Shown piece after piece: positions 1,627-62,227 of a stretch of DNA of 64,000 nucleotides. The position numbers and the translations under genes are program-made. The stretch covers positions 19,599,332 through 19,663,331 of the forward strand of contig OZ020516.1 of the NCBI GenBank assembly GCA_963971425.1, written 5' to 3'. Positions within the stretch are counted from its first letter, which is position 1. The number at the start of each line of letters is the position of its first letter. Origin of the DNA: Bryoerythrophyllum caledonicum. Lineage: Eukaryota; Streptophyta; Bryopsida; Pottiales; Pottiaceae. The notes under the pieces are model-generated. The model searched no databases and had not been told where the DNA came from. It saw nothing but the letters and a program-made list of their open reading frames with translations.

Positions 1627-1954
1627 ATGTCACCGGATGTGGCGTCAAAGACGGCACCACATTGCATAGTGTTAGCGTAGATTAGATAGTTTATTTTACG
1701 TTTGTTAGTGATGTACGTGTGCCAAACCGCATCTGTCCAACGGATGTATTTCATTTGTTATAGTTATGCGTGTGTGTGTGTAGTGGCAAGTCAAGCTTTG
1801 TGAGTATCTTTAGAAAGTGATAAGTGAGTTACCTTTGCTTGTAAGTGACGTGTTATCATTAGTAAAGGCTCCGCATTGTTTAGTTCCACTTGCACTTGTT
1901 GATTCTCCCCTTGCGGAGTGCGAGACGCTTGACTACTCTTGTGATTTGCAACAT
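1627..1954 (+). repeat. Terminal repeat (A1-type) of a third, older relative of elements Y and O, interrupted at 1954
   Basis: Begins TGTCACC and aligns along its length with the reverse complement of the right terminal repeat of element O (42493-42850). Shared blocks include GCGTAGATTAG, GTAAAGGCTCCGCATT, CACTTGTTGA and GACTACTCTTGTGATTT. The repeat stops where element Y was inserted (target duplication ACAT at 1951-1954 and 13727-13730) and resumes to about 13737, running into TTGACAAAGA, as in O. So Y inserted into the 5' terminal repeat of a plus-strand relative. Confidence 0.65.
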
Positions 1955-2186
1955 TGTCGTGCACAACCGCATCGTGCCAAGATGACATCGTGCTAATCAG
2001 GTGAGAATGCACAGTCAGAGACAACTCGAGAGTAACGGTGACATAACCACCACCGTTACCTCTATAAAATAATAATACAATGCACACTTACACACTTTCA
2101 GCAATCCAGACTTGAGGAAAAGAAATAAATGACCCATGACCTCGTACACCAAGAAGTAGTAAGCGGTCTCCAAGTACCCCTTTACT
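1955..2186 (-). repeat. B2 terminal repeat of element Y (outer 3' end)
   Basis: 232 bp, matching 2557-2788 (offset 602) with only two differences seen. It forms the outer left end of the insertion, next to the ACAT duplication. The right end of the element has no copy of it. Confidence 0.9.
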
Positions 2187-2554
2187 AATAAACAAGTAGA
2201 AAATACTCATAAACTACACATAGTCAAGCCAATGCCATTCTTAAAGAATGGTCGCATAGTAACAATGGGGTTAAAGAAGTGCACGCACGCACGCACTCTC
2301 TCACTCCATCACGTGGGAGACTCAACTTGAGAAAGATGAGTCTTCCCACACTACACGTGGAGGTCATTTGGACTCCAAGTCCCAAATAAGGTGTCAAAAG
2401 ACCACCACGGCCCTAGAAGTCAAATAACACTAATACTAACTCTAATTAACAACTAAAGCTAGCATCTAGGGTTTCCTTGGGCCATTTAACCTCCTAGTTG
2501 GTTTACAACGCGTAAACCAACCTCCACAAACCCTCCAACGCGTCGAACCTGACA
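2187..2554 (-). repeat. A2 repeat of element Y
   Basis: About 368 bp, ~98% identical to A1 at 13357-13726. It lies between B2 (1955-2186) and B1 (2557-2788). It ends CTGACA at 2554; bases gc (2555-2556) separate it from TGTCGTG of B1, making the near-palindrome TGACAGCTGTCG. Confidence 0.9.
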
Positions 2555-2556
2555 GC

Positions 2557-2788
2557 TGTCGTGCACAACCGCATCGTGCCAAGATGACATCGTGCTAATC
2601 ATGTGAGAATGCACAGTCAGAGACAACTCGAGAGTAACGGTGACATAACCACCACCGTTACCTCTATAAAACAATAATACAATGCACACTTACACACTTT
2701 CAGCAATCCAGACTTGAGGAAAAGAAATAAATGACCCATGACCTCGTACACCAAGAAGTAGTAAGCGGTCTCCAAGTACCCCTTTACT
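2557..2788 (-). repeat. B1 repeat of element Y (inner)
   Basis: 232-bp copy of B2. On its internal side, 2789-2803 is pyrimidine-rich on the plus strand, so the element strand carries a polypurine-like tract (CGGGCGAAGGGGGCG) directly upstream of B1, where plus-strand priming would be expected. 2804-3019 is the element 3' untranslated region with no ORF. Confidence 0.85.
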
Positions 2789-3019
2789 CGCCCCCTTCGC
2801 CCGTGCTGAAGCCCCTTTCACACCGGCGAACCACACAGTTTACCTGTAAACTGAATGATAACCGTGAATGAAAACCTCTCAAAACCATAGAATCACTGGA
2901 ATCCACATGAAAAGACGCTAAAAGACTTAAGAAACAAAGGGTAGGCCGGGTGCAAGTAGAGCCCCATCGTTAATCGCCTCTAACATATTTTTATTGCTAG
3001 ACTTTGTCCACTCAGACCC

Positions 3020-6000
3020 TCAACGTGCTAAACACTCAGGACAAGACCATTGATCCACTGGTACTTCTAACAGAGGTGGAATTAAGCATTCTAAATGCCA
3101 CCCCGTAGAACATAAGTCACAAATAACCATAGTGGCAGCCCTTTTGGCACTACCACACAACCGACAACGTAATCCAGCAGAGATGTGAGAGAGACCAGGG
3201 TGTACTGTTCCATCAATGTGTGGCAAGTGGCAAGGTGCACAATTACGTGTGTGATCCTTCCACTTCTTGCCATCACGACCCTCCAACACTAACACTCCTG
3301 AATCCTTCACCTCACGAACTCTTAAGATTATCCTTCCTGCTGTCACATCCAAGGTGGTGGGCGCTGCTTGCTGCAAATACACATAGTCTCCAGGTGTGAA
3401 ACGCCGCACCTGCGGTCGATTACCACCTCCCCGTATCGTAGCATAGCGCAACGTATCTCGATGTTGAGCAATGGAGAGGTTCTTCAATGCCATAGGCATC
3501 ACCCTTTTGAACAACTCTGCACGTTGCTCACACACTTGAGCCCACGTATCTGGATTGTCCATGTTAGCCAACACGGTGTCAGCATCTGCTTGAATGGCCT
3601 TCAGTAAAACCGGGTGCTTTCCAAACAATAGATAGTAAGGTGAAAAAGACGCCAAGGATGCCTGTTTACTGAACCGATAGCCCATTGCTATCCATGGTAG
3701 CTGTAAATCCCAATCCTGGTGGTGTCCTTTCTTCAAGCTGTACTTCCGGAGCCCCCTCTTGACGGTTTGCACCATGCGCTCCGCCAATCCATCTGCTTCG
3801 AGGTGATCCCTCGAAGTAGTGCGATGATCAATCATTGCTTGTTCACACAACGTCTGAAACTCACCCAAGAATTCTCTGCCTTGGTCTGTAAGTACCTCTG
3901 CTGGAGCTCCAAAGCGACTCAGAATACGGTCAAGAAATGAATAAGCAGCTCCCTCACTGAACTTATCAGGTAATGCCACTAACTCTATCCATTTCGAGAA
4001 ATACTCTATGATTACCAACACATACTTGTTGTGTCGAGGTGTCACTGGCAATGGATCTTCAAAATCCAAGCTCCATCTATATCCTAAGCCCATAATTGGC
4101 AAAGGTTGTAACTGAGGCATTGGAGCGTTAAAAGACGCTCGTACCCGGTCACACACCATACACCGAGCCACTAAAGCTTGCACTTGGGATTGCATTCCAC
4201 GCCACCAGTAGTGAATCTGAAGTAGACTATAAGTCCTCCGCACTCCAAAGTATCCCAGGTCCTCATGTGTGTCTTTAATCAGTTTCACTCTTTCTATTGG
4301 AGTTGGTACTACCTTCTTAGTACCATCTGGCCACACTCTCACAAGGTGAGTCCTCTCCCACACAAACCTCTTAGCTCGTTGTAGAACCCTATCTCTCTCC
4401 TTATGAGACGATGAAGCCACCGTTTCTCCATCTTGCAAAAACTGCATCACATTCGTGTCTTCGTGAATATCTCTAGCGCCCCCAGACTCCTCACCTCCAT
4501 CCTCATCTACTGTGGCCACAGTAGCTTTCCCGGTGGTGTCTCCATTCAATGTCAATATTCCCAGAAAACCCGAACAATGCCAACCTGGCAACGGATCGGT
4601 TTCACCTTCAGTATGCCACTTGGCACCTATATCATCCTCTTGATTTGGAATTGGATTGCGGCTAAGGCCATCTGCATCCATATTAACCAAACCTGCCCTA
4701 TGAACCACCTTGAAGTCATACTCCATCAACATCAAGGCCCACCGTGCCAATTTTCCTATCAATTTATCAGACTCCATCAACCATTTCAACGGTTGATGAT
4801 CTGTAACTAACAGAAATTCGTTACCATAAAGATACCACCGAAAATGAGCAATTGCCCATATCGCAGCCAAGCATTCCCCCTCATACGAGCTATACTGAGC
4901 CTCAGCATTGTTGTTGGACCGGTTGGTATACGCAATCACAAATTCCTTACCATCATCATCCATTTGCGTCAATACTGCACCAATCCCCAACGAGCTCCAA
5001 TCTGTGTGTAGCTGGTATGTCCTTCCTGCTATAGGCCTCCGAAGTATTGGTGCTGATGCCAAACGGTCTTTCAATTGTTGAAAGGCCGCCTCTTGCTCAT
5101 CTCCCCACATCCAAGGTTGATCATTCCTTGTGAACATGGTTAATGGCTTGGCAATAGCACTGAAAGTTTTGACAAACTTTCTATAATAGTTACACAACCC
5201 CTGAAATGCTCTCAACCTACTAACATCTCGTGGTCTAGGAATAGACATCACTACTTCCACTTTGCTAGCTACCACACCTAATCCACTTGGATAAATCATG
5301 TGGCCTAAATACTCAATGCGATCAAAGTAGAATTTGCACTTACCAGGGTGCAACTTTAATCCATTAAGCCTCAATCTAGCAAAAACCTCCATCAAGTGTA
5401 GTCTATGTTGTTTTCGATTCCTGTTAAAGACAATGATGTTATCAATATAGCATCTCACGAAATCCAACCCCGAGAATACTCTGTCCATGACCCTTTGAAA
5501 TTCTGCTGGAGCATTCTTCAATCCAAACGGTAGAAACTTCCATTGAAACAACCGGTCCTTCCCATCCCTGTCAATGCCCCAGAACGCGGTTTTCTCCTTG
5601 TCTTCCTCTCTCAATCCAATCTGGTGGTATCCAGAGCGTAAATCCAACGTACTAAACACCTTGGCATGGCCAATGGCCTCAAAATTCTCCTCAGGAGTTG
5701 GCATTGCATAACGGTCTAACTTAGTGAATTTATTAATTCTCCTATAGTCACCACACATCCTTTTCTCAGTCCAATTACCATAAATGTCCTTCTTGGATGG
5801 CATAACCGTTGCTGATGCATACTCACAATCTGGAGGAGCCAACTCCACCAACCCTGCAGCCATCAATTCTTCAGTGCGAGCACGAACCATCTTCCGCTCC
5901 ATGTCGCTGTACTTGAATGGCTTTCGATAAATTGGTGCTTCGTCGGTTAAGTTAATACGCACTTCTTGCCCCTTCAACACTCCCAAATCATGTAAATTGA

Positions 6001-6136
6001 AAGCAAAACAATCTAAATATTCCTTCAGGAACTCATGTTCCTCCACCTCCACTACTCCATCTGCCAAGCCTACTCTTGGTTTCCAAGTGTCCTTAATCAC
6101 CACCTCCTTCGGTTCCTTTGGAGCAGGGTTTTCCAC
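3020..6136 (-). CDS. pol of element Y: reverse transcriptase, RNase H, integrase, C-terminal PHD finger
   Basis: 1,038 codons without a stop. RT: CGDYRRINKFT, LDLRSGYHQI, FLPFGLKNAPAEFQRVMD and catalytic box CYIDNIIVFN, where the second aspartate of YxDD is asparagine. RNase H: HTDWSS, YEGECLA, VTDHQPLKWL, NMDADGLSR. Integrase: HHCC zinc motif with the second His changed to Tyr (GYFGV, then CMVCDRV) and a DDE core with D in WSLDF, D in LTDQGREF, E in GLAERMVQT. After a GPY-like region the last ~50 residues form a C4HC3 PHD finger: CRLC, CDLC, HLEC, then W two residues before CPEC. PHD fingers usually bind histone H3 tails, so this may guide integration as chromodomains do in chromoviruses (inference). 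YIDN and the Tyr suggest this copy is inactive. It is in frame with the methyltransferase ORF, separated by TAG at 6146-6148. Confidence 0.92.
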   Translation of the reverse strand: MENPAPKEPKEVVIKDTWKPRVGLADGVVEVEEHEFLKEYLDCFAFNLHDLGVLKGQEVRINLTDEAPIYRKPFKYSDMERKMVRARTEELMAAGLVELAPPDCEYASATVMPSKKDIYGNWTEKRMCGDYRRINKFTKLDRYAMPTPEENFEAIGHAKVFSTLDLRSGYHQIGLREEDKEKTAFWGIDRDGKDRLFQWKFLPFGLKNAPAEFQRVMDRVFSGLDFVRCYIDNIIVFNRNRKQHRLHLMEVFARLRLNGLKLHPGKCKFYFDRIEYLGHMIYPSGLGVVASKVEVVMSIPRPRDVSRLRAFQGLCNYYRKFVKTFSAIAKPLTMFTRNDQPWMWGDEQEAAFQQLKDRLASAPILRRPIAGRTYQLHTDWSSLGIGAVLTQMDDDGKEFVIAYTNRSNNNAEAQYSSYEGECLAAIWAIAHFRWYLYGNEFLLVTDHQPLKWLMESDKLIGKLARWALMLMEYDFKVVHRAGLVNMDADGLSRNPIPNQEDDIGAKWHTEGETDPLPGWHCSGFLGILTLNGDTTGKATVATVDEDGGEESGGARDIHEDTNVMQFLQDGETVASSSHKERDRVLQRAKRFVWERTHLVRVWPDGTKKVVPTPIERVKLIKDTHEDLGYFGVRRTYSLLQIHYWWRGMQSQVQALVARCMVCDRVRASFNAPMPQLQPLPIMGLGYRWSLDFEDPLPVTPRHNKYVLVIIEYFSKWIELVALPDKFSEGAAYSFLDRILSRFGAPAEVLTDQGREFLGEFQTLCEQAMIDHRTTSRDHLEADGLAERMVQTVKRGLRKYSLKKGHHQDWDLQLPWIAMGYRFSKQASLASFSPYYLLFGKHPVLLKAIQADADTVLANMDNPDTWAQVCEQRAELFKRVMPMALKNLSIAQHRDTLRYATIRGGGNRPQVRRFTPGDYVYLQQAAPTTLDVTAGRIILRVREVKDSGVLVLEGRDGKKWKDHTRNCAPCHLPHIDGTVHPGLSHISAGLRCRLCGSAKRAATMVICDLCSTGWHLECLIPPLLEVPVDQWSCPECLAR

Positions 6137-6148
6137 CCTTGGTTGCTA

Positions 6149-7594
6149 TTGAATCCACTGTGGAGGAGACTCCCCTCCTTCCTCCTCAATAACACTCCCA
6201 AGTCCTTCCAATTGACCCAGTTTGTTAATTTCTTCCATGTGAAGAGCTGTGTGTTCTTCCAAGAAGATCTTCTCCACAACATCCTCCAAATCCATCCTCT
6301 GATGAGCCAATCTGCTCCCTTCACTCCAAATCTCCCCTCTATAGTGAAGATCTGTAGCCCGGGTGGTCGCAAAAATATTTGCGTTATTCCACATGTTCCA
6401 TGGATGAGGTGCAAAGGTTCTCTCGCCCCCAACCACCTTGCTTGTCACTCTGACAGAGGCAAGTGGTTCTCCTGCCGCCCGCAACTCATAATAACCCATG
6501 TAACTAGTTAAACTAGAAGCTAACCGCTTCTGTTCTGCAACCACTAATGAAACAATCCAAGTCAAGCAATTCAAATCCATGGCCTGACCAAGTAAAAATC
6601 GTCTCTGAGGTTCTGAAATCCTAGGCACATCGGTGGTGCCAGTGGGAAACCCCATGGCTCTCTCTCTCTCATCTGCATTGGGTTCTACTATCTCCTGAGA
6701 CACTGAATCCCAAACAAGTCCAGGTCCATTATCCTTGAAAGCATAAGACCTTGCAAAACTAACCAACGTGGGCAATGCCCTAAGTGGTTCCCCCTTGCGG
6801 TTAACCACCGCTAATGGGGCCTGGTCATCGTGATACACGCGCCGTGGTGTTCTGTGAGGATCCAAAATGTCACTCACATATACATCTGGGCGTTTAATAC
6901 GACTCACCGCGGACTGTAGCAACTCTGCTGGTGCCAGGTTTGTCCACCACAAGCGTGGTCTATGTGACCTGGACCCTACTGCAGCCGCATCAATTAACAC
7001 TGGCAATCCCAGAGTCTGATGGATCCTATGCATACTCTCGAGTGTCCTGGACCTCGAACTGCTCACCACGGGCACGTTCTCCACAATATAACCAGGCGGT
7101 TGCCTCTGAGAAGTCTGAAGCAATCGAAGCACTCAAATCATGTCAAAGAACCTGGAAGAACGGGAATCCTTTAACCCATTCTGATTGCCTGCCATAGACA
7201 TGCCTTCGCAAGGCCATCATGCAATGACAAGGTCCACATGACCCACTCGGTGAATGTCATCGTTTGACAACAAAGAAATATCACCCACAACTGTAGAGAA
7301 GGAGGTTTTGATGGCACTAGTGGCCAACAATTCTGAGAATTGAGTCCTCAGCCTCCGTGTGTGACGTTTGGCCACATGCCTTGCTGTTTCATCCACATCC
7401 ACGTAAATGTAGCGCTTAACCTTGATCCCACCTTGTAAAACAGCTGCCAAGCCTGTGCCAATTCCTCCGAAGAGCTCCAATAATACGATACCATCCATTG
7501 GTGCCTTCCAATGGATAGTAGCAGTGTCTAACGGAGGCCCCATGTCTTGGTCAACTCCAGTCTCCTGTTGCATCTGTGGTAGCATAGATTGTTG
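6149..7594 (-). pseudogene. C5 cytosine DNA methyltransferase domain of element Y (DNMT3/DRM-like)
   Basis: Would transfer methyl from S-adenosylmethionine to cytosine C5. Two ORFs in the same frame, 7585-7217 and 7132-6146, carry the conserved motifs in order. Motif I: LLELFGGIGTGLA. Then VGDISLL and DLVIA before the catalytic loop WPCEG (7216-7202). Motif VI: IVENVP. Motif VIII: DAAAVGSRSHRPRLWW. Motifs IX/X: ERERAMGFP and LLGQAMDLN. The IDA-x5-HRPR-x-WW arrangement and LGQAMDL spacing resemble DNMT3/DRM enzymes more than DNMT1 or CMT (from memory). Stops: TGA at 7217-7219 immediately before WPC, and TGA at 7133-7135, where CGA is a plausible ancestor. About 200 residues of unknown function follow motif X before TAG at 6146. 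It sits between protease and RT in the polyprotein. Confidence 0.9.
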
Positions 7595-8344
7595 CTATGC
7601 CTCTTCCACTACTAACTCCGCGGCCTCCCTCAACTGGGTGGTGTTACTCCACGCCGCCTCAATCCCAGGTTTGTATCCTTCTTCCTCTCCACCACTCGTG
7701 TTGCCTATATAGACATCCACCTTCGCTGAAATGTGGTCAACCATAGACGGATCCACAAAACCTATCTGAAACCATGAAGGTTTCATATTCATACATCCAG
7801 AGAAGGCAAACAGGTCAGCTAAGTTACCAGTAAGAACTCGAACAAATCGAGCTGGCAGCTGAGCCTTCCGCCCATCTCCTGCTTGCCATCCTGGTCTATA
7901 GCTTGCTGACCCTTCCCAGAAATCCAAGGTGAATCCCATAGGGTATAGCACCGCCGAGCCTACCAAGACGTCATACGACTTGGCTTCAGTAACGATCGCC
8001 TTCACCTTCATAGAACTGGCATCTGCCACATCACTTTGGTTGAGTTGTAAAACTAACTCAGCCCTTGTGATCCCTGTGGCGTGCTCTGTACCCCCCATGG
8101 ATGTGCTAATGGTCCAGGGACACTTCTCCAAAGTATCCCCAGTTAATCCCAACCCTTCCATAGCAGACGCTCCCAGCATCAAAGGTTGAGCTCCCGAATC
8201 CAGAAGCACACGTCGAGGTACAAATATCCTCCCTTTAGGCCCAACGAGTTGGAAAATACCTTGGGAATTATCAACCACTACCACACCAGGGGTAATGGAT
8301 GATCTCTCAATCGCAGGTCTAGCGGCCATTGTCTTCACACGCAT
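7595..8344 (-). CDS. Retroviral-type aspartic protease of element Y
   Basis: About 250 codons in the same frame as gag and the methyltransferase. A single LLDSGAQ active-site motif with upstream hydrophobic strands, a later ASAMEGLGL strand and YDVLVGSAVLYPMGF match a pepsin-like retroviral half-protease that works as a dimer. It should cleave the Gag-Pol polyprotein. It is bounded upstream by TAG at 8378-8380 (the 11 codons between are open) and downstream by TAG at 7595-7597, which is followed by CAA. The region after the protease core (roughly residues 150-250) has no recognised domain. Confidence 0.75.
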   Translation of the reverse strand: MRVKTMAARPAIERSSITPGVVVVDNSQGIFQLVGPKGRIFVPRRVLLDSGAQPLMLGASAMEGLGLTGDTLEKCPWTISTSMGGTEHATGITRAELVLQLNQSDVADASSMKVKAIVTEAKSYDVLVGSAVLYPMGFTLDFWEGSASYRPGWQAGDGRKAQLPARFVRVLTGNLADLFAFSGCMNMKPSWFQIGFVDPSMVDHISAKVDVYIGNTSGGEEEGYKPGIEAAWSNTTQLREAAELVVEEA

Positions 8345-8377
8345 GGCTGCTGAAAGCAGCCCCTCGACGTTCTCACT

Positions 8378-10258
8378 CTAGCTCTCCTCTGCTTGGATGA
8401 TCTCTGTCTTCAACACATTCACCCCCGTGGAGTTATCCAACTCACACCTTGAGGCTACACTTTTGAAAACCTCTGCCACACTGAAGCCATCCTGTGACAA
8501 CATCTTAGCAGAAAATAACGAGGCTTCCCACACGGAAGTAGTTGCCTCCATAAGTGCTTCGGAACCTCCTATGAGTCCTCCAGCTCGTGGTAAGGCTTGT
8601 GTGGGTGTCGCCACTGGTCGTGGTGGAGGAACCATGGACGACGTGGGTACCATCTCTTCTAACGTGAAGGATTGTGGCAACCTGGCTTGTTGGTTATCTT
8701 TTCCATGGTGTGGATCGAAAGTCGGAGTAGCTCCTCGTGGAATATCCTTAGAAACTGGAGTATGGCTCCGTGTGAGAGCATAGGCCTCCTGTGTGCCATC
8801 CTTAATGGCAAGTGCCATGCCACTTAACATAAAGTCTCCAAATTCATCATCTACGGAGCTAAAACCGCCCCCAGCATGAAAACTGGGAGTAACCTGAGGC
8901 TTGCTACCCACCACATTGGTACTGGCACTCATAGCTTCCATCTTGGCCTCCAACTCGGCGAATTTGGCCTTCCAGCTCTTCTTCTCCCCTCCAGTGGTCT
9001 TGGACTTTTTGTCCTTGCCTCCTTTAGCTCCCTTACTCCCCGTGGGCTTCAACTCTGGATGGAGCTTCCAGCAGCTGGCCTCTGCATGCCCCTTGGCACC
9101 ACAACCCGAGCAAAAACCTCCAGTCTGAGGTGTGGAAGTTTTACCTTCCTTGCAATCCTTCCTCTGGTGTCCTGGCTTCCCACATTTGAAGCACAAGGCA
9201 CCAGACTCGGCAGTATACGAAGGAATGGCCACCTTGGCCACCTTAACCTTCCCTGGGACCTTCTCTTCACGTTTGAAAAAGCCCATGGCTGCCTTCTCTT
9301 CCAGTAAGTTTATCTCAATCCGCTCTGAAGTCTCAAAAACAAACCGTAGTGTCGTGGGTACTCCCAATCGCAACGCCTCATTGCGAACCAAGGTCTTCAA
9401 CTCCTTATCCATGATACTGTACCAATGTTGCACTGCCTGTTGTTCTGTAACTCCGTGAGTAGCTGAGATTAGTCTCCTTAATCTCGCATGAGCCTCTCTC
9501 AGAGACTCGTCACCTCCATGTGTGAAGGAACGTAGGGCCTTCATCTTATCCGCCTTCTGTCCTTGGTAGTCTCTGTGGAGTTGCACGGAAAATCCCACGG
9601 TGGGATTGAATGGAGGTGGATGATTTACCAGTGCCTCTGGCTGCTCCACATCCTCCGTTGAGCTCGTGCCTTCCTCCATCTTCCCCTTGGACAAGAGTGG
9701 GGGTGTCACCCTCGGTGCTCCACCGAACACGTCCACGTAGTTCGGTGCGTAGAAGTCCTTCCAGGCCATGATTTCGGTGAAATGAGCTGCCTCGAACTCT
9801 CCGTAGTCCGCCAGTGGCGCTCCCTCCAGACACCCAAACAAGGCTCTCCACACCATATACGGATTGAAGTTGGGGTTACGTGACTTCTGGAGTTCACACC
9901 ACATGGTGAACTCCCTCTTGAAGTCATCGACTTCGATGGTGCCCGTGGCACCTGAAAATCTTCGTACCCCTCTTTTTCCACCTCCATATGGTGAAGTCAT
10001 TTCCTCCCAATCAAAATATGACTGGTAAGGCTTTGTGGGTAACACTGGGACCTGAACACCCACTTGCGGGCTTTCTAAAAATTCCTCCTCTTCCACCAGT
10101 GGCAAAGCACTCTCCTCTACCTCTTCCGATTGACCACGAATTTCAGACAACACTCTCTCACTAGCATCTACTGAGAAGGGGGTGTTTCTACGTGTAAACC
10201 CGGGACCCTTCCAGTTCTCCAGATTGCTAGTTTCGTGATCTACTCGAACAACTGCCAA
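8378..10258 (-). CDS. gag of element Y, two CCHC zinc knuckles
   Basis: About 626 codons. The middle part looks like a Ty3/gypsy capsid (DDFKREFTMWCELQ, then a long helical segment ending TLVRNEALRLG). The C-terminal third has two nucleic-acid-binding knuckles of form CX2CX4HX4C: CFKCGKPGHQRKDC and CSGCGAKGHAEASC, followed by a lysine-rich stretch. Its role is to package element RNA and form the particle. The reported left end uses a TTG codon; the real start is probably in the overlapping upstream ORF (10240-10881) joined by a shift of frame. The ORF ends in TAG (8378-8380) with the protease in frame 33 nt later. Confidence 0.85.
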   Translation of the reverse strand: MAVVRVDHETSNLENWKGPGFTRRNTPFSVDASERVLSEIRGQSEEVEESALPLVEEEEFLESPQVGVQVPVLPTKPYQSYFDWEEMTSPYGGGKRGVRRFSGATGTIEVDDFKREFTMWCELQKSRNPNFNPYMVWRALFGCLEGAPLADYGEFEAAHFTEIMAWKDFYAPNYVDVFGGAPRVTPPLLSKGKMEEGTSSTEDVEQPEALVNHPPPFNPTVGFSVQLHRDYQGQKADKMKALRSFTHGGDESLREAHARLRRLISATHGVTEQQAVQHWYSIMDKELKTLVRNEALRLGVPTTLRFVFETSERIEINLLEEKAAMGFFKREEKVPGKVKVAKVAIPSYTAESGALCFKCGKPGHQRKDCKEGKTSTPQTGGFCSGCGAKGHAEASCWKLHPELKPTGSKGAKGGKDKKSKTTGGEKKSWKAKFAELEAKMEAMSASTNVVGSKPQVTPSFHAGGGFSSVDDEFGDFMLSGMALAIKDGTQEAYALTRSHTPVSKDIPRGATPTFDPHHGKDNQQARLPQSFTLEEMVPTSSMVPPPRPVATPTQALPRAGGLIGGSEALMEATTSVWEASLFSAKMLSQDGFSVAEVFKSVASRCELDNSTGVNVLKTEIIQAEES

Positions 10259-10881
10259 GCTTCATGGGTCCCTCTCATCTGTGGAGCATAGATCGTAGGT
10301 GTGACTTCCCAGTCCAATAACTCTAACGTAAGAGTATCCCACACACTCGAGGCACGCTCTTGCCACGAATTAATCTCCCACTGCCAGGTAGTGTGGAATA
10401 AAAATCCTTCGCTCTCGAACTCGGTGAAAATGAGGGAGAAGGTGGGTAACTGGATTCCTGAAGAGAAGTCCTCGACCTCTACACTATATCTGGATCCAGA
10501 ATTCCGTAGAACCACGGCCTTACCTCCAATCACTAAGTCTTCGACCCCCACTTGCCCACGAGCACGGCACAGCGGTGCTGGAATTCCCTCCTTTGTCCGA
10601 AGTGAACGAATCTTCTGGACCCCACCTAGTGAAGTCCAATACTTCACTGATTCTGCACTCAACACCTTCGTGCCTGGTTTGTGCAAACTCTGAGGCCCCG
10701 AGCGAGATTTTGCTATGGGAGTAAGTTCAAAGTCCCCGTGGCTACCACTTGCTGTGGCTGGAGAACCTTTCACTCGTAAGCTCTGCAAACAATCGATCAA
10801 GGTGTCCAACACCTCGCCATCAATTTCCACCTTCGGCCCACTAGTCCTCTCGGGTTTCTTGGACTTACCTCTTCCCTCCAT
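10240..10881 (-). CDS. N-terminal gag-leader ORF of element Y, unknown domain
   Basis: 213 codons starting ATG and ending TAG inside the start of the main gag ORF, which is in the -1 frame. It begins with a basic patch (GRGKSKKPERTSGPK) and contains a beta-rich segment (GKAVVLRNSGSRYSVEVEDF). I do not recognise the domain. Either it is the natural N-terminus of Gag separated by an indel, or a separate short ORF1. No clear slippery heptamer is visible at the overlap. Confidence 0.55.
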   Translation of the reverse strand: MEGRGKSKKPERTSGPKVEIDGEVLDTLIDCLQSLRVKGSPATASGSHGDFELTPIAKSRSGPQSLHKPGTKVLSAESVKYWTSLGGVQKIRSLRTKEGIPAPLCRARGQVGVEDLVIGGKAVVLRNSGSRYSVEVEDFSSGIQLPTFSLIFTEFESEGFLFHTTWQWEINSWQERASSVWDTLTLELLDWEVTPTIYAPQMRGTHEAWQLFE

Positions 10882-11059
10882 GGTCCATAATTAGAGTGCC
10901 AAATATCCTTGAAATTCTTAAACCATATTAATAGAGTCCCTGCGAGCTTCCAAACGTCCACTTTGCACCTACCAAGCACTGTGTATGCAATCACCCCTCA
11001 TAATAAACTTTGATCTTTACCTGCAAGCCTTTCATGACCTCATACGAGTATGGCAACCA

Positions 11060-12090
11060 CGCATGCGGTCCCAGTGCGGGTATCGTGCTCAAATCTGAGC
11101 ATATACCATGAACCCGTGTATCTACAACCAGGCGGGTGATTCTTACAACCAATTATCAGTCCCAAGCTCGGTTACCAACCCCCGCAGCCGGTCATCAACC
11201 CGACTGCCGGTTATTAAGCAACTGTAGGTCATCAACCCCACAGCCGATCAACAACCAAGGGGGCCGGGTTTCAACCAAGCGACCCGGGCACCAATCATGT
11301 CCAGGGTATCAATCCCTGGACCGGTTATCAACACTGACCAGGTTATCAACCTCTGCCCTGGCTATCACTCTTGTAGGGTACCGGCTCACACAAGGTATAA
11401 TCAATCTCAATCCGGATACCAGCACAAGAACAAGGTATCAATACTGGTGGAGGGTATCCATCGAAGAAACGGGTATCAGCCGATGTAAGGGTATCATCCG
11501 CGGAAACGGGTATCAGTACAGGACCAGGGTATCAACTCACAGGTGTTGATAAGCTCTCAAAACCGGGTGTAAACATCGAAACCCACATAAAATGTGCAAT
11601 CCAGGTATCGAGGAGCCAGCTGGATATCATACCTAGGCGGGTATCCGACCCATGCGGGTATCCATAATCCTACCAGACGGGTATCGGCTCTCAAACAGGG
11701 TATCACTCCAGCCAGGGTATCACTCCTAAACCGGGTAGCAATAGTACAAGAGGGTATAATTGGCAAACTCGGGTATCAGTACCCCCACGGATATCAGCCC
11801 AACCGGGTATTATCCTCACCGGGTACCCACTCACCGGGTACCACCTCACGCCCGGGTATCATACGTATGCGGGTATCATATCTCTAACCCGGGTATCTAA
11901 CCTGCTGCCGGGTATCAACTACTGCTAACTACATTCCAGGGTATCAAATGAACCAGCCGGGTACTAGTAAGTGGCAGGGTATCCGTACACACCGGGTGTC
12001 AGACCAAACAATGGGTATCAACCCCACAACGGGCAGCAGTATAATACCGGGTATTCGGAAGGAGCAGGGTATAAGTAATAAGTGCCGGGT
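11060..12090 (-). repeat. Degenerate GGGTATC / GATACCC array in the element Y leader
   Basis: Roughly forty copies of a GGGTATC-like core (often CCGGGTATCA), spaced about 15-30 bp with little conservation between cores. Read on the element strand the core is TGATACCC. No ORF explains it; short frames here are by-products of the repeat. It lies between A1 and gag, a regulatory or packaging position. Confidence 0.8.
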
Positions 12091-13356
12091 AGATTTATAG
12101 TTGACGTGAACCCTGTCTGCGCGCGCAGACACCAACGGCGCCGTACCAGAGCACGCGTCTTCTTCACGAAACGCCGCACGAGCTCCAACCCACCTCACAA
12201 CGCAACAAACAGGAGTATGCCCGCGAGTAATCTCTGCAAGTCCAGACGCCGCAAATCTACCTGTGGCCCGAAACCAAAACACCTGAACCTGCACATACGA
12301 CCATCATACACAGAATTCGTAACCCCAGCTTGCACTCCTGCCTTCTTGCACACGGTGCTGCTGCTACTGTGATGCTCTGCTGGACCTCTCACTCCGTCTC
12401 AAACGTGCGTCGGCCGCGGCACCCTGTTGGTCGGACTCCAAAGTAGGTCCCTACCGACACCCTCCATCGCCACAGTGCACCTACTGTCTCCCGACGTCTT
12501 GTGCACGTGAACACTTCCTCCGACGTCCTCCACACCCTGGAGTGCTTCCCCAACCACCGGAAGCTCGACTACCTTTGCGCTTCAGTACTCCTGGTCACTC
12601 CAGCTCCCGGAGCCCGAACTTCCACGGCCACCACCACCAGCAGGCGTCTCGACCGGAGCCGCACACTCACTGCTCGCGCTAGCAAGACGTCACTCCTGTA
12701 CCGACGACGCTCCGCCTTGCCTAGCACCGACCTCTTGCGACGCGCCGGCCCAGCAACTATGGCACCCAGCGCCGTGGCTCAGATCCATCGCCGGGCTCAC
12801 CTACTCCGCCACTGCAACTCAACCGTCCAGCGCGCGCTCCGTGCACCAGCAGTACTCCTGCGGAGTCTCGCCCTTCCACGCGAGCACCACCACTGTAGCA
12901 GCAACGCCGCACGTCACTGCAGCAACTCGTCCGTGGAGTCTTCGACACAAACCGAGCACAATGTCGCCCAGATTCACGATCACTACTCCCGCACTCAACC
13001 TCGCTCGTTCGCGCTTCAGAGTCAACGTTCAGAGCCCTCGCACGCAGCCTCCAGCAAGCTCCAACGTCAACAGTCCGTCCAAAGCGGATCTTGCTTCATC
13101 CACCAACTACGGATGAATCTCCAAGTCAACGGGATTTCATCTATGTTGGTTGGCACATGGCCACTCTCTACCACTCCTTTCCAACCTTATCTCTAACATT
13201 CATCCCTTCTCCTCTAAGCATGCTTGAGGTTTTGCAACAAAAATTTCAGCACTAATACATTGCTCAAAAACACCCTAAACACAACATTTTGAGGGTTTTA
13301 AGTGTCACTAAATCACTAGGAATACACTCATATCTTAGTGATGATCTTTCTCAAGT
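12091..13356 (-). other. 5' leader of element Y, no supported gene
   Basis: GC-rich and CpG-rich from 12100 to about 13100, with arginine/serine-rich short frames on both strands that look like composition effects. It becomes AT-richer to 13356. The bases next to A1 on the element strand read CTTGAGAAAGA; element O has CTTGACAAAGA at the same place. No standard tRNA primer-binding site starting TGG is visible there. Confidence 0.5.
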
Positions 13357-13726
13357 AATAAACAAGTAGAAAATACTCATAAACTACACATAGTCAAGCC
13401 AATGCCATTCTTAAAGAATGGTCGCATAATAACAATGGGGTTAAAGAAGTGCACGCACGCACGCACTCTCTCACTCCATCACGTGGGAGACTCAACTTGA
13501 GAAAGATGAGTCTCCCCACACTACACGTGGAGGTCATTTGGACTCCAAGTCCCAAATGAGGTGTCAAAAGACACCACCACGGCCCTAGAAGTCAAATAAC
13601 ACTAATACCAACTCTAATTAACAACTAAAGCTAGCATCTAGGGTTTCCTTGGGCCATTTAACCTCCTAGATGGTTTACAACGCGTAAACCAACCTCCACA
13701 AACCCTCCAACGCGTCGAACCTGACA
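13357..13726 (-). repeat. A1 terminal repeat of element Y (outer 5' end)
   Basis: 370 bp matching A2 (2187-2554). Outer end CTGACA at 13726 is followed by the target duplication ACAT. It passes straight into the leader without any B sequence. Confidence 0.9.
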
Positions 13727-13737
13727 ACATTTCCAGT

Positions 13738-14376
13738 TGACAAAGATTTGAGGTCCAAAGCAGCTAGCCCCGGATTTAGGTCTAGGTGCTTAGGACCTCA
13801 AGTCTTGCCCATTTACAATTGTCACATTGGCTGGAGGCAAGGAGAAGGCCATGGGGTACAACTGATATCCGTTGCAGTTGATGTTCGACGTGGAATTGGG
13901 CCTTTATTCTCCCACATATCCCTTCAGTGCACTATGATTGGTGCCACCAACTACGACATTCTAGTGGATCAACACGCACCATATCTACTTGGATTTGGAG
14001 TGGATAATTAGACGGATGACGCCTAAATTAGACTTGGATAGTCTATTGGTCATGGTAGGAAGAAGCTCATTCCGGTTGTCTTTGCAGCTAGTGCGATGAC
14101 TTCAAACTTGGACGCTATGTTTGGATGCAATGCGTTGGCATTAGATTTGCCATGTGGTTCTACGCTTTTGGAGGAGACACATGCACTTATATATGGGGTA
14201 GCGAGATCCCGTGAGCACTCTACAATGGAGGACCCTGCATGTCATTGCAAGCATCTATTTCCGCCATGGGGGATCCAATTAGAGTTCACTTGTTGCAATC
14301 TAGAGATCGTAGATGCTCTTCATGATCCACCGTTCTTTGAAAACCCTTCCGCTTTGTTGTTGACTCACACTATTGA
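13738..14376 (+). pseudogene. Protease-region remnant of the third (plus-strand) relative
   Basis: One open segment (13748-14011) contains NYDILVDQHAPYLLGFGVDN, matching YDVLVGSAVLYPMGFTLDF in the element Y protease ORF. Further on, GHGRKKLIPVVFAASAM parallels GDGRKAQLPARF. Similarity ends near 14376, just before the point where element Y enters its methyltransferase. Its 5' terminal repeat is 1627-1954. Frame breaks and missing gag make this a remnant. Confidence 0.55.
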
Positions 14377-17300
14377 GTGGCAATCGTTGGACATTATCAG
14401 TACCTAAACCTAGGACATCTGCAGTGTACGAATGCTGATTGCGACTATCTTAAACGGGTCCATCATATGTCAATCGCAAATGAAATTGAATGGAACGGTT
14501 TTTGTCCAAGTCCGTTTCATGTAGGCAATTCTCCCGCTCCATTGTCCACTCTAATTTGTAGCATCTGCCAACGTGCATGTTTAGGCACGTGCTTGGAAAA
14601 AATTTACTATGCCTTTGGCCATGATCAAATGACTCGTGCGTGTGTCTATTTGGGAACTCACAATCACTCGGTAAAACAAGGGATATGTAGAGAGTCATCC
14701 CTTAACCCCTAAGAGCCTAAGTGTATGTGGAGCGTACGTTTTGGATTTTGGGCATGTACCTTTGAGTAGAAAAAACACTCCGATTCTTATGAAAATTTTG
14801 CACTTCATTGTTCTTAATGAAATCTATATGGGGAATTTTTCAAATATGATTTTGGACTTTTGGTTCAAAAGTTATTATCCTTCAAAGGTCAAAATGGGGA
14901 GTCTGGACTATAGGGGCAGCCATGTCAACCAATGCAAATTGAAGAGAAAAATGGGGCAGAATTTTGGGACAGAAAGGACGAAGAAAGGAGTCCAAACTTC
15001 TATGCACAAAGTCCAAGTAGAAAAATCTTTGAAAATTATTAAAGAGTTATTAAATAATTTTTTAAATTAACAAACAACCAACTGTCAGTTGTCCTGCCAG
15101 CGTCACGCGCCGGAAGCGGGCTCGTTAAGATTTTTTTTTTTTTTTTTAAAATTATATAATTTTTTTTTTAAATAATTTTTTTTAAAATAATTTTTTATAA
15201 TAATTTTTTTTCCATCCAGCTGCAAGGGCTGTCAACAGCGGGACGAATTGGCCACCCAAATTCAAGCACTGCCCTTTCCCATAATGTTTTATTTATTCCA
15301 TATATTCATGAAATTATGGATTTCACTAATTTTAGTCGTTTCTTTTTCTAAAATTAGTGAAAAATCAATTGAAAGTTTCCACCATTGGGATTCTCAAATG
15401 CAACAACTTGTATGAAACAAACAATTTCATATCACTTATGTAGTAATTGTCATCATTTTGTACCCCCTTTCACTAAAGTATATATTTCTACATCTATTAC
15501 CCCTCTAATTGACCTCAAATTTTGCACACATATGGATAACAACATATAAGTCATATTGGTAAAAGATTAGATCACATTTCAATGTAAAAACTAGAAGATA
15601 TGCCTAGTCAAATTAGGCTGACCTTGCCGGGCAAGGGGGGGAAAATACTTTTCTTTGCACTTCAAACGCTATAATCTTCACATCCGTGCGGTAGATTGCA
15701 ACCAAATTTGTACTGTAAGTTTATATACATGTCTATTTTAAGATTGTATGGCTAAAAGTCTAAAATTGGACTTCAATGTTATATTTTGTTGCCACTTGTT
15801 GATGATGGCAGTTTTGGAGTGTTTCATGAGGGAAATGCCTTGGGCTTTTAGGGGTTCAACTTCGGAGCCTCATTGGAGAGCAAGTAGAACAAACTCCTAT
15901 TGTAACAAATTCTTCCATCGTAGTTGAGGCGAGCAAGGAGTTCTTAGGGGAATTACTGCTCTATTTGGAAGGCGTTCATCAAAAGACTCTTCCATTCAAA
16001 GAATTTATACATGTGCTAGATAAGTTCAAGCAGATGACGTCCGCAAATATCCGCAATGAGGTCACTACGTTCAAATATTTGAGACATTTTGGTGTAATGG
16101 ACAGCATTACCAAATTGAGGGGGGCCTCCAATTGGGCCTTTGTTCAGGAAAACTAATTTCTCGGTCAGGGAACAAACTCCGATAAAATATTCCTATTCAA
16201 GATGGCCGAAATAGGACCAGGAAGTGGTGTGGATCTAGTGCGGCGCATACAACCAGGGGCAACCTTGGGGACGCTTGGATAATGTTCGATCACGTGAAAC
16301 GAGTGAAGGACTGGACAACCAGGGCCTGCCATGTATATGACTCAACATATTGTCGTGTGATGACAATTGCAGTTTGTGACATGCAATCTGAAGATGTAGG
16401 AGTGCAACCAATCTTTTGGCAGAATTTGAATGCCATGGCAGCTAGGCATGGTATCCATGAAGTCACGCTTAAGGGCTTTATGGCTGATAGTGCTCAAACA
16501 AACTGGAATGTTGTTTGCATTACGTATGGAGGTGAGGACGCGAAGAAGCACATGGAAAATCGAGAGCGCACAAGTCTTTTCTACTGGACATAGTCACTCG
16601 AGAAACACACAAAGGCGGACATACGAGCAGACCTCCAAGAACAAGAGCGACAACTTTGCAAACAATACAAAAATGCCAAGACGCTCGAGGAAGCAGACAC
16701 TAAGTATATAGCTGTTAAATCATGGTGGCTATCATCAGGAGTGACAACGGATGATAGAGTTGTTCGTCTAAACCTCTGGCTAGCGTTTTGGCATTTCCAA
16801 TATAGACAGTGGAGAGGTTTTATGGAGCTTGTAATTTCATTTTTGTCATTACTACATTTGAATTTGCATGTCTAGGCAAGCCCTCCCTTTAAAGGGTGCG
16901 GCTAGTTATCTAAAGGTTCACGAGACCTATTGTTTTAAAAGTCAAGGTACTTATATTTCTTTCAACTTCCCCAGACTCTTTTTGAAGCGGAATTGGCTGA
17001 GATGCCATCGTGCAATCTTGCAAAATCCGTACACAATAGGTGGTTACAACAATCAGGGAAAAGACGCACTGATCTCTACGTTGCAAGTGTTGATGATATG
17101 GTTCGTGCTTTCATGCAAGTTGTTGCATATTATCAGTTCTTGAAGGGTTAGAAGCCAAGCACTGGACCGGAGAAAGAAGAACTCCGACTGCGAACTGCTC
17201 AGCATAACGCTCATTGCTCTGGCAACTCAAAGGTACTACACAAGGCCCTCGCGAAATGCTTGGAGCTAACGAGTTCTGCACGCGCGATCCTTATTTAGAA

Positions 17301-31338: not shown

Positions 31339-31443
31339 TGTCGTGTAAAGAAAGATCGATAACCTCAACAAATCGAGAGTCCTAACCAACATCAAATAAA
31401 CAAAAAATATACACTAAAACAAGCATACGTAGTACACCCTCAA
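31339..31443 (-). repeat. B2 repeat of element O
   Basis: 105 bp beginning TGTCGTGTAAAG; the matching copy is 31803-31907 (offset 464). It is homologous to but shorter than the B repeat of Y (shared CGAGAGT and TATACACT-like blocks). Confidence 0.8.
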
Positions 31444-31800
31444 AGAATAACTAATAAATCATAAGAGTAGTCAAGCGTCTCGCACTCCACAAAGGGAAAA
31501 TCAACAAGTCCAAGTAATATACGAGAATGCAGAGCCTTTACTAATGATAAACAATCAATTCTAAGCAAAGGTAATCAATAAACACTCTCTAGCTGACTTA
31601 CAAAGCGTGACTTGACAAAGTCCTCAAGTCAAGGACGTGTGCGGCGGTATACGCACACACACAACCCTAACTGGATAAAAATCATCCACAGATGAATGGG
31701 GTGCGCCGCCATACGTCCCTAAATGCATAGATTAGTAACAAACTAATCTATGTTAAAATACCACGATGCGGAGAGACCTTGGACGCCACGTCTTCTAACA
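31444..31800 (-). repeat. A2 repeat of element O
   Basis: ~357 bp matching 42493-42850. It ends TTCTAACA at 31800; gc at 31801-31802 joins it to TGTCGTG of B1, the same junction as in Y. Confidence 0.8.
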
Positions 31801-31802
31801 GC

Positions 31803-31907
31803 TGTCGTGTAAAGAATGATCAATAACCACAACAGATCGAGAGTCCCAACCAATATCAAATAAACAAAAAACATACACTAGAACAAGTATACGTAGTACA
31901 CCCTCAA
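31803..31907 (-). repeat. B1 repeat of element O
   Basis: 105-bp copy of B2. On the element strand the sequence just before it is purine-rich (AGGGGAGGCAC, 31908-31918), as in Y. Confidence 0.8.
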
Positions 31908-32220
31908 GTGCCTCCCCTAGCGGATAAAGAGACCATCTATCCAGCTAGGACCAAACGACAGTAACAAGACTAAACGCCACGGTGATGTCGTTGCAACAAC
32001 TCAAAGCATCCAGCCAAAGATGTCCCCGTCGCCAAATCAATAAGCATCTGGAGAAGTAACAAAGAGAGCGTAGGCCGAGTGCAATGTGAGCCCGATCTTT
32101 CGCCTTAGACAACTTTGTTGCCAATTCCTTAGTCAATCTTCACGTTGCCTATCCTTGCATAGAAACCAAGAACTCCAACTAGATGACAACGCACCATACA
32201 ATGACAAGTCCACGAGGAAT

Positions 32221-32593
32221 TCAAGTTGTTTCATCGGGTGAAACGTGGCTTGAAGACCTTGGACAACAAGAGCAAGTCCAATCCCCGGACGGTAGAATAG
32301 AAAGAGGCGGCATCAAGCAAGCCATATGCCAACCACGCTGGCAATGGTGACAAAGCAACATGGTAACCGCGCCCTTCTTCTCACCACACACAAAAACACT
32401 CAAGGCCGTCTGACACAATAGCCAACTCCGGATGAACAAAGCCATTTACAGGAAAATAACATGAAATACAATTCTTAGATTGCTCCCAACACTCTTGACC
32501 ATCGTTGCCTTCCGGGAATAAGATGCCACTTGAGAACACATCCTTCATGTGAAGAATAGTGGGCCCAGCCTCGACGTCCAACATCGTGGGCGC
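32221..32593 (-). pseudogene. 3' end of pol of element O with PHD finger
   Basis: Minus-strand segments parallel the last ~110 residues of element Y pol: APTMLDVEAGPTILHMKDVF against APTTLDVTAGRIILRVREVK, VHPELAIVSDGLECF against VHPGLSHISAGLRCR, and a C4HC3 finger ending GAVTMLLCHHCQRGWHMACL, then DWTCSCC. One frameshift lies inside the finger between the first and second Cys pairs. The upstream coding sequence resumes at 39372-39394 (YLQRKAPT) beyond the inserted gypsy element. The PHD finger is therefore shared by two clearly diverged elements. Confidence 0.8.
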
Positions 32594-33102
32594 TGATAGA
32601 CGCAAATTATTAATCATGCATATTACTCTTTCACTCATGATCATCGTCTGATTTCGAGATGGTGGATTGATTCTGAGTTCCTACAGATTGTGAATGCTTT
32701 CGTGACCGGTATGCATGCAACTAGGACCACACGGTAATGAAATCTGACTTTATTGTTTAGAGTCTGTGAATCAAAAAGGTCCTAACCGAGCCGATTATAC
32801 CAAGTTATCTCGTGAACTGTGTTGACTCCGAGCCCTGCAGACTGAATGGTTCGGTTTCTCGATGTTGCTGATAAGCTGGGTTCGATGATGAATCCGATGC
32901 TAACTGGTTCTCCCCACTAATCGATCGTCTACTCTAACTGATTATCTACTCTAACTGATCATCTACCTAATTGATTGTCTATCGAGACGATATCGCCAAG
33001 AAACCACAACCTCCAGACTATGCAAGGGACGTATTGATATTCGCCACGTCATTGCATGAGGTCCGAAACAATTGATGACGTGAAATTATTCGTGGTCGTT
33101 CA
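32594..33102 (-). repeat. 3' LTR of the recent gypsy element
   Basis: Starts TGATAGACGC and ends GTGGTCGTTCA on the plus strand; nearly identical to 38863-39371. Confidence 0.92.
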
Positions 33103-37940: not shown

Positions 37941-38038
37941 TATGATGTGTGGAAAAGTTTGTTAACTGTATAGAAAAGCACGCCAAGTGTGTAGAAAAGT
38001 CTGCTAAGTATGGCATGTCATAACGTCTATTTGGAGCT

Positions 38039-38709: not shown

Positions 38710-38840
38710 CTTAATACAAATCGCTGGTTCCCGCCCATGTTCTGAAGGATTCTATACCTCTGACAGGTGGTTTCTATCCTCGCTATTCTGCTAAAGTATC
38801 AATATTTAATCGGCTCTCACCATTTCGACAAGTCTCAGAA

Positions 38841-38859
38841 GGTCTCGGCAACGGAACCA
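38841..38859 (-). other. tRNA primer-binding site of the recent gypsy element
   Basis: Three bases inside the 5' LTR the element strand reads TGGTTCCGTTGCCGAGACC, complementary to a tRNA 3' end finishing in AACGGAACCA. It resembles, imperfectly, the plant tRNA-Asp site (TGGCGCCGTTGCCGGGG, recalled). Confidence 0.7.
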
Positions 38860-38862
38860 AGA

Positions 38863-39371: not shown

Positions 39372-39394
39372 GCGCCTTGCGCTGTAGATAAATG

Positions 39395-40101: not shown

Positions 40102-40148
40102 GTTTTGAAGGGCAGAGGATGATTTTCTTGTGGATGGAAAGTTTGAAG

Positions 40149-62049: not shown

Positions 62050-62227
62050 ACGAAGGAAAAATGTCTCAATAAATGTACTTGAGTGAGCATTTAAAAGGCA
62101 ATACCCGTCACGCGCAATAAAAGTTCCCTAAAACGACCTTTGGAGCCTTTGCATCCAAACGCAATACTTGTAACGTACAAAATCAAATTTAAGAAATACG
62201 CCTCTGTCCATATCTATGATGTATGTA

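What the first reader, a model, noticed from the sequence alone, without database searches (positions are those of the whole stretch)
3020..10881. Retrotransposon polyprotein that combines a DNA-methyltransferase writer with a PHD chromatin reader
In one reading frame element Y encodes gag, protease, a C5 cytosine methyltransferase with all main motifs, RT, RNase H, DDE integrase and a C4HC3 PHD finger. Methyltransferase capture by retroelements has been described in dinoflagellates and charophytes; a PHD finger at the integrase end of the same element is, to my knowledge, not a standard arrangement. A plausible role is that the PHD finger steers integration to a histone mark while the enzyme methylates new cDNA or the insertion site, hiding the element from the host.
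Basis: partly seen in the sequence, partly recalled or inferred. Interest (0 to 1): 0.93.

Follow-up and report, generated by a model that had tools for sequence, protein, structure and literature searches.

The report
Jumping gene carrying methyltransferase and PHD
A decayed copy of a plant-and-alga retrotransposon carries its own DNA-methylating enzyme and a histone-reading finger, and the arrangement of its ends suggests it is inserted from a circular DNA form, which would be unusual for an element with this kind of integrase.

Summary
Element Y lies on the minus strand and spans 1955-13726 (11.8 kb). It encodes gag, protease, a DNMT3-type methyltransferase, RT, RNase H, DDE integrase and a terminal PHD finger. 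It is not one open frame: five in-frame stops and an N-terminal frame break interrupt it. It is no one-off: of 108 proteins returned by two searches, 63 carry DNMT, integrase and PHD in one ORF, in two domain orders. DNMT3 in a Gypsy with DIRS-like repeats was published for Klebsormidium (de Mendoza 2018); that paper's main text does not mention a PHD.

Beyond the finding: (1) the ends are split direct repeats A1-body-B1.GC.A2-B2 with TGTC/GACA termini, a 4-bp target duplication and a readable empty site; a second, diverged family member (31.3-42.9 kb) has the same layout. (2) The palindrome GACAGCTGTC at B1/A2 recurs in three relatives. (3) A 13-nt self-priming pair covaries between Y and relative L005. 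(4) A TAG-CARYYA readthrough context separates gag-pro-DNMT from RT-INT-PHD in Y and L005. I infer a circular integration intermediate and DNMT co-made with Gag. Chromatin targeting and methylation remain untested.

The parts
1955..13726 (-). whole element Y
   Evidence: split direct repeats, TGTC/GACA termini, 4-bp target duplication, empty site readable
13727..13730 (.). target site duplication copy (ATGT on minus strand)
   Evidence: empty-site alignment
1951..1954 (.). target site duplication copy (ATGT on minus strand)
13356..13726 (-). repeat A1 (5' terminus; holds predicted RNA start)
   Evidence: 98.1% identical to A2
13495..13507 (-). self-priming segment ATCTTTCTCAAGT, predicted RNA 5' end
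   Evidence: 13-nt complement to primer site; held by 1 of 20000 Markov shuffles of A1
13344..13356 (-). primer binding site ACTTGAGAAAGAT, starting at last base of A1
   Evidence: compensatory change in L005
10891..13343 (-). leader between primer site and gag
   Evidence: no long frame there
10243..10890 (-). N-terminal gag piece by position, frame differs from rest
   Evidence: no Pfam hit
8381..10261 (-). gag with zinc knuckle
   Evidence: zf-CCHC 1.5e-5
7598..8377 (-). aspartyl protease piece
   Evidence: PF13650 2.5e-4, under cutoff
6539..7522 (-). DNMT3-like methyltransferase, broken by TGA at 7217-7219 and 7133-7135
6140..6148 (-). TAG CAA CCA, readthrough-type stop between ORF1 and ORF2
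   Evidence: same TAG-CARYYA context at the same place in L005
5294..5770 (-). reverse transcriptase
   Evidence: RVT_1 1e-29
4718..5107 (-). RNase H
   Evidence: RT_RNaseH 2.9e-32
3812..4294 (-). integrase (H2C2 and DDE core)
   Evidence: 2.1e-14 and 5.9e-12
3032..3166 (-). PHD finger
   Evidence: PF00628 4.7e-9; nearest PDB sequence KDM5B 1.7e-12
2789..2798 (-). purine-rich tract GAAGGGGGCG before B1 (putative polypurine tract)
2557..2788 (-). repeat B1
   Evidence: 99.1% identical to B2
2551..2560 (.). palindrome GACAGCTGTC at B1/A2 joint (putative internal integration site)
   Evidence: only copy in 64 kb; also in L001, L004, L005
2186..2554 (-). repeat A2
1955..2186 (-). repeat B2 (3' terminus; base 2186 shared with A2)
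31339..42850 (-). element Z, second family member (L005-like), internally deleted and interrupted by another Gypsy element; upper end approximate
31339..31907 (-). [not shown]
42493..42850 (-). [not shown]
1628..1950 (+). element X remnant: A repeat into which Y inserted
13731..14392 (+). element X remnant continued: primer site and protease-DNMT linker

Best explanation
Y is a decayed copy of a Ty3/Gypsy retrotransposon lineage of green plants and algae. Shown: domain content, repeat layout, target duplication, conservation in relatives. Inferred life cycle: RNA starts inside A1 and primes its own reverse transcription by folding its first 13 nt onto the primer site after A1. Ribosomes make Gag-Protease-DNMT and, by reading through a TAG-CARYYA stop, a minority product that adds RT-RNase H-integrase-PHD. 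DNMT is therefore made at Gag levels and can enter the particle. Reverse transcription yields a DNA whose RT-defined LTR is B.GC.A. Because the integrase site GACA.GC.TGTC lies inside that LTR, the DNA must be joined into a circle (or head-to-tail dimer) before the DDE integrase opens one palindrome and inserts A-body-B.GC.A-B with a 4-bp duplication. The PHD, of a class that includes readers of unmodified H3, tethers the integrase to chromatin, as chromodomains do in chromoviruses. The DNMT3 domain de novo methylates the cDNA or its insertion site, quieting the new copy.
Confidence: 0.5

Rival explanations
2. The domains are real but the DNMT is a passenger: captured, kept in some lineages and lost in others, without a role in the cycle.
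For: DNMT-less PHD-bearing members exist (L002/L003, P0049); 27 of 86 long DNMT domains match EC in place of PC at the catalytic motif and 13 match neither (crude pattern).
Against: DNMT is present in many distant members, and the DNMT tree shows the type II side as one clade as the RT+INT tree does; K. nitens copies show Ka/Ks below 0.2 (PMC5890265, section 9).
Confidence: 0.2
3. The layout at the 3' end is a nested or recombined LTR, not a feature of the family.
For: The window holds nested elements.
Against: Exact 4-bp duplication at A1 start and B2 end with a readable empty site; same layout in Z; palindrome joint in L001, L004, L005; DIRS-like repeats reported for K. nitens (PMC5890265, Fig. 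4 legend).
Confidence: 0.04

Closest known systems
KnitGypsy-Dnmt3 of Klebsormidium nitens (de Mendoza et al. 2018, PMC5890265; abstract, sections 9 and 10 and passages seen)
   Same: Gypsy domains, DNMT3 inside the polyprotein before RT (K. nitens protein P0059), repeats described there as DIRS-like; its integrase end matches ours (51% identity over 54% of the query).
   Different: PHD not mentioned in the main text (0 occurrences; supplements not readable here); P0059 stops 8 aa after INT, so its PHD is undetermined; no target duplication, self-priming or readthrough in what I saw.
SymbioDIRS-Dnmt3 and SymbioLINE-Dnmt of dinoflagellates (same paper)
   Same: Retroelements that carry a cytosine methyltransferase; two domain orders also coexist in SymbioDIRS.
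   Different: DIRS (tyrosine recombinase) or LINE elements; the paper treats the Gypsy capture as independent; no DDE integrase or PHD in the passages seen.
Chromoviruses (Ty3/Gypsy with chromodomain; PMC6317226, passages)
   Same: Chromatin-reader domain at the integrase C-terminus of a Gypsy polyprotein.
   Different: Reader here is a PHD, not a chromodomain; chromoviruses have no DNMT (recalled). That survey's main text has no occurrence of PHD, methyltransferase or methylase.
DIRS/PAT elements (PMC4157794, passages)
   Same: A1-B1-A2-B2 split direct repeats.
   Different: PAT elements use a tyrosine recombinase; ours has a DDE integrase and a 4-bp target duplication.
Tf1/sushi self-priming Gypsy elements (PMC6317226, passages)
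   Same: Self-priming of reverse transcription; the pairing of the RNA 5' end with the site after the 5' repeat is recalled.
   Different: Ordinary LTRs (recalled); chromovirus clade.
Jockey-superfamily LINEs with PHD in ORF1 (PMC4120745, search listing only; detail recalled)
   Same: A retroelement carrying a PHD finger.
   Different: Non-LTR element; no integrase, no DNMT (recalled).

Membership tests
Ty3/Gypsy retrotransposon | protease, RT, RNase H, then DDE integrase | tested here: met
   (protease just under cutoff)
KnitGypsy-Dnmt3-like Gypsy | DNMT3-type methyltransferase in the polyprotein | tested here: met
KnitGypsy-Dnmt3-like Gypsy | common descent with the K. nitens element | tested here: inconclusive
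   P0059 groups with most type I DNMTs with SH-aLRT 81 to 84, but type I P0013 falls outside; P0059 was not in the RT+INT tree because its RT hit is split
KnitGypsy-Dnmt3-like Gypsy | DIRS-like repeat structure | tested here: met
   split direct repeats in Y and Z; K. nitens side only from a figure legend
Chromovirus | chromodomain after integrase | tested here: not met
   PHD there; no chromodomain among the hits of the pol piece
DIRS/PAT | A1-B1-A2-B2 split direct repeats | tested here: met
DIRS/PAT | tyrosine recombinase | tested here: not met
   DDE rve core; no recombinase hit in the six scanned pieces
DIRS/PAT | no target site duplication (recalled) | tested here: not met
   ATGT duplication and empty site
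Tf1/sushi self-priming group | 5' RNA end complementary to primer site | tested here: met
   the RNA start itself is predicted, not measured
Tf1/sushi self-priming group | membership by RT phylogeny | not tested
   no Tf1/sushi rows were in the tree
PHD reader of unmodified H3 | PHD sequence and fold with PDB neighbours of that class | tested here: met
   neighbours of other classes are listed too
PHD reader of unmodified H3 | binding to H3 peptide | not testable with these tools
   needs protein

The most novel reading that the evidence does not exclude
A whole lineage of DDE-integrase retrotransposons in green plants and algae integrates from a circular DNA through a conserved internal palindrome (GACA.GC.TGTC), so that the inserted copy is a circular permutation of an ordinary LTR element, while packing a DNMT3 writer with Gag by stop-codon readthrough and carrying an H3 reader on its integrase.
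Probability: 0.4. Interest if true: 0.92.

Novelty: new variant of a known kind. Interest (0 to 1): 0.78.

Why it matters
It joins a DNA-methylation writer, an H3-reader-type finger and an integrase in one mobile polyprotein, and shows the combination belongs to a widespread lineage rather than being a freak. If DNMT is made with Gag, it can be packed with the cDNA, which gives a concrete way for an element to set its own chromatin state. If the circle model holds, it is a natural DDE-integrase element using an internal circle-junction site, an idea once proposed and dropped for retroviruses (recalled). A Marchantia gene model on a 22-Mb contig (P0004) holds protease, DNMT, integrase and PHD stretches by the HMMs made here, though of these only its PHD passes Pfam. 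That speaks against the published statement that DNA-methylase transposons are absent from land plants such as tracheophytes (PMC6338049, passage).

Tried and rejected
Chance insertion of the methyltransferase: rejected, 63 of 108 returned proteins share it with INT and PHD. Alternative genetic code to explain the stops: not pursued; both TGA stops in the DNMT stand where P0118 has a sense codon (glycine before WPC, and arginine). Ordinary LTRs: rejected for Y and Z. tRNA primer: by eye no TGG at the border of A1; self-complementarity found instead. Secondary loss of DNMT in the DNMT-less members: favoured by tree placement, but holding the 41 DNMT-bearing type II rows together is not rejected (p-AU 0.143), so ancestral absence stays open. 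Relatives in viral contigs: none confirmed. Host: not identified; L005-like DNA in this window (pieces 75-89% identical in Z) and liverwort carriers suggest a bryophyte or near relative (inference). CpG depletion as a trace of self-methylation: uninformative. REM1 paper (PMC1291216): not held. Rows dropped: the RT+INT tree kept 63 rows with RT over 300 and INT over 200 residues, so P0059, P0103 and others are absent; the DNMT tree kept rows with more than 235 residues of DNMT, plus P0191. Both trees are quick searches with SH-aLRT only, and warns of long branches. Hits were chosen by an INT-PHD region, so their PHD rate is biased upward; one search is the fairer count. One search was limited to proteins of 0.55 to 1.75 times the query length, which favours ORFs that end after DNMT. 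Shuffles are first-order Markov samples, not exact shuffles.
Full report
What was checked. The finding calls a region of the minus strand a retrotransposon polyprotein with a methyltransferase and a PHD finger. Six stop-to-stop pieces were scanned with Pfam. The pol piece 3023-6145 gives RVT_1, RNase H, integrase zinc and core domains and a PHD finger well above its cutoff. The gag piece gives a zinc knuckle, and the next piece a protease just under its cutoff. The two methyltransferase pieces give no PF00145 hit at 0.1; the copy is broken there, with TGA stops at 7217-7219 and 7133-7135 on either side of the WPC motif. Relatives settle its identity: blastp of the pieces reaches 1e-46, and with stops read as X the protease-DNMT stretch is 71% identical to P0119 over 545 residues.

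Not a freak. A search with the integrase-PHD end returned 60 proteins, and one with the DNMT of relative P0043 returned 51; three are shared. Domain HMMs built here give, for the 108 proteins, 104 with INT, 98 with INT and PHD, 63 with DNMT, INT and PHD, and 46 with DNMT, RT, INT and PHD in one ORF. P0060 is a PHD and JmjC-domain protein by its Pfam list (domain names recalled), not a retroelement. Among the 48 INT-bearing proteins, 43 have a PHD; the five without end 2 to 90 residues after INT. Named sources include Klebsormidium nitens (P0059), Marchantia (P0004), Volvox (P0028) and Haematococcus (P0054, P0055), and Calypogeia (P0129) and Closterium (P0154). P0004, P0028 and P0054 show DNMT, INT and PHD; P0055 shows INT and PHD without DNMT; P0059 has no PHD in its ORF; P0129 is a DNMT-only ORF and P0154 DNMT plus a piece of RT.

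Two domain orders. In type I, DNMT precedes RT (window, L005, P0013, P0059, P0101, P0103, P0108); in type II it lies between RNase H and integrase (50 of 108). A tree of RT plus INT (63 rows, two of them outgroup) splits the 61 ingroup rows into a side of 15 that holds the type I rows (SH-aLRT 88) and a side of 46 that holds the type II rows (99); no row of one order falls on the other side, though 10 rows of the first side show no DNMT in their ORF. A tree of 109 DNMT domains also puts the type II DNMTs in one clade (98). So the enzyme has travelled with its element since the split, and its place in the polyprotein changed once or was taken twice; these trees do not say which. Elements with PHD but no DNMT between protease and integrase exist: L002 and L003, identical in the tree rows, and P0049. 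They fall inside the type II side, but ancestral absence is not rejected (p-AU 0.143).

Methyltransferase type. A profile of six DNMT domains finds DNMT3A in PDB at 2e-21, then DNMT3B and 3C, against 4e-11 for 4onj (titled DNA methyltransferase), 5e-10 for HaeIII, 5.6e-10 for DRM2 and 2e-9 for HhaI. A model of P0115 (pLDDT 77, 20 sequences) matches DNMT3A at 7e-18. In 86 long DNMT domains a crude pattern finds PC in 46 and EC in 27 at the catalytic motif; 13 match neither, the window (broken there) among them.

PHD type. The window PHD is nearest in sequence to KDM5B (1.7e-12), then PHF12, the MLL3 homolog and KDM5A. A model of the integrase end plus PHD (pLDDT 77, pTM 0.44, so domain orientation is not trusted) has PHF1 chains on top at TM about 0.2; PHD-only neighbours include UHRF1 with unmodified H3 tail, BAZ2A with unmodified H3K4 peptide, ATXR5 with H3, and also UHRF1 with an H3K4me3 peptide. 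That KDM5B PHD1 prefers unmodified H3K4 is recalled. DNMT3 enzymes read the same histone state through their ADD domain (recalled).

The ends. A1 (13356-13726) equals A2 (2186-2554) at 98.1%, and B1 (2557-2788) equals B2 (1955-2186) at 99.1%. The order is A1-body-B1-GC-A2-B2. The element begins TGTC and ends GACA, flanked by ATGT on both sides. Joining the two flanks, keeping one duplication copy, gives a continuous A repeat plus primer site of another family member that aligns without a gap across the joint to L005. Y therefore inserted into element X, and its ends are exact. A second member, Z (31339 to about 42850), matches L005 in DNA pieces of 75-89% identity. It has lost much of its body and is interrupted by another Gypsy element, yet keeps A1, B1, GC, A2 and B2 in the same order. 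Its A copies are 82% and B copies 91% identical, so it is older; its flanks match in 3 of 4 bases at best.

A conserved joint. The B1-GC-A2 joint is the palindrome GACAGCTGTC, found once in the window (Z has one changed base). The same palindrome, extended to 20 and 16 bases, lies downstream of the PHD in L001 and L004, and in L005. L002 and L003 end 420 and 511 bases after the PHD domain and cannot be tested. Markov shuffles of the 2.5-kb stretches hold it in 30, 26 and 7 of 5000. In L005 the sequence runs on from this joint to leader and gag-protease. In L004 it runs on to an open frame that I take for gag by position; it has no Pfam hit. L005 is a 9285-base contig whose ends overlap by 127 bases, as a collapsed repeat element may assemble (inference).

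Priming. The 13 bases at the A1/body border, counting the last base of A1, are ACTTGAGAAAGAT, and their complement ATCTTTCTCAAGT lies at 220-232 of A1. In L005 the pair is ACTTGACAAAGAT and ATCTTTGTCAAGT: both sides changed and pairing was kept. In Z the primer site is ACTTGACAAAGAC; its A1 segment is GTCTTTGTCATTT (10 nt pair, the first by changes on both sides against L005) and its A2 segment GACTTTGTCAAGT (12 of 13). One of 20000 Markov shuffles of A1 held the 13-mer, and 3 of 3000 reached 12 or more against the 31 bases at the border; for L005 2 of 3000 reached 12 and none 13. A purine tract precedes B1. Ordinary Gypsy reverse transcription would thus give the LTR B.GC.A, with the integrase site in its middle. 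What is inserted is that product closed on itself and reopened at one palindrome. This is inference; the rival is a DIRS-like templated circle.

Translation. In Y the frame after DNMT ends CAA TAG CAA CCA, in L005 AAG TAG CAA TCA; ORF2 follows in the same frame in both. TAG followed by CARYYA is a known readthrough context (PMC4132726, passages). In the window 3 of 1734 TAGs on both strands have it. Of the 84 proteins, 50 reach the end of the DNMT model and 19 of these end 97-131 residues later, three of them with the same ...IQ ending as Y (P0127, P0142, P0167); the other 31 have tails of 1-93 or 145 residues. That search favoured short ORFs, so this is support, not proof. P0002 and P0116 share a contig length of 6232, and P0006 and P0118 one of 7322, as if ORF1 and ORF2 of the same contigs (inference).

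Known and new. De Mendoza et al. 2018 (PMC5890265; abstract, sections 9 and 10 and passages seen) described KnitGypsy-Dnmt3, with DNMT3 in a Gypsy Pol and, in a figure legend, DIRS-like repeats. PHD has no occurrence in its main text. The plant LTR survey PMC6317226 has no occurrence of PHD, methyltransferase or methylase in its main text. Ten paper searches in an open-access library, several with capped lists, showed no other paper whose title or abstract start describes a Gypsy integrase-PHD, or a DDE-integrase element with split direct repeats and target duplication. Subscription papers and Repbase entries were not searchable, so priority is not claimed.

Verdict. The finding is right in substance, wrong on the single frame, and too narrow. 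I rate the integrase-DNMT-PHD lineage and its end structure as a new variant of a known kind; the circle-based integration is the part that could be more than that.

Noticed in passing
31339-42850 (-): Second, diverged member of the same family (L005-like) with split direct repeats; matches to L005 between its gag and integrase-end pieces are missing, and it is interrupted by another Gypsy element.
   Followed up: partly
1628-1950 and 13731-14392 (+): Element Y inserted within the A repeat of a third, deleted family member, a few bases from its primer site.
   Followed up: partly
33086-37544 (-): Another Gypsy element (protease, RT, RNase H, integrase pieces) nested inside element Z; CpG o/e 0.97 for 33000-38700 against about 0.6 in two other stretches.
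   Followed up: no
26972-27160 (-): U2 spliceosomal RNA match (68.5 bits, Rfam RF00004).
   Followed up: no
60957-62127: Open frames of 266-371 aa in all six reading frames over about the same kilobase, with no Pfam hit in the one frame scanned; probably a repeat.
   Followed up: no
806-1330 (+): Three tandem-like copies of a 157-nt repeat; two are 61% and 75% identical to the reference copy.
   Followed up: no
P0026, P0063, P0101 and others: Motif IV of many family DNMTs reads EC instead of PC (27 of 86 by pattern); effect on activity unknown.
   Followed up: no
P0104: One type II relative shows two PHD fingers after the integrase.
   Followed up: no
L001-L005: Contigs titled as archaeal or bacterial genomes that carry this eukaryote-type element family, so probably misbinned.
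   Followed up: no
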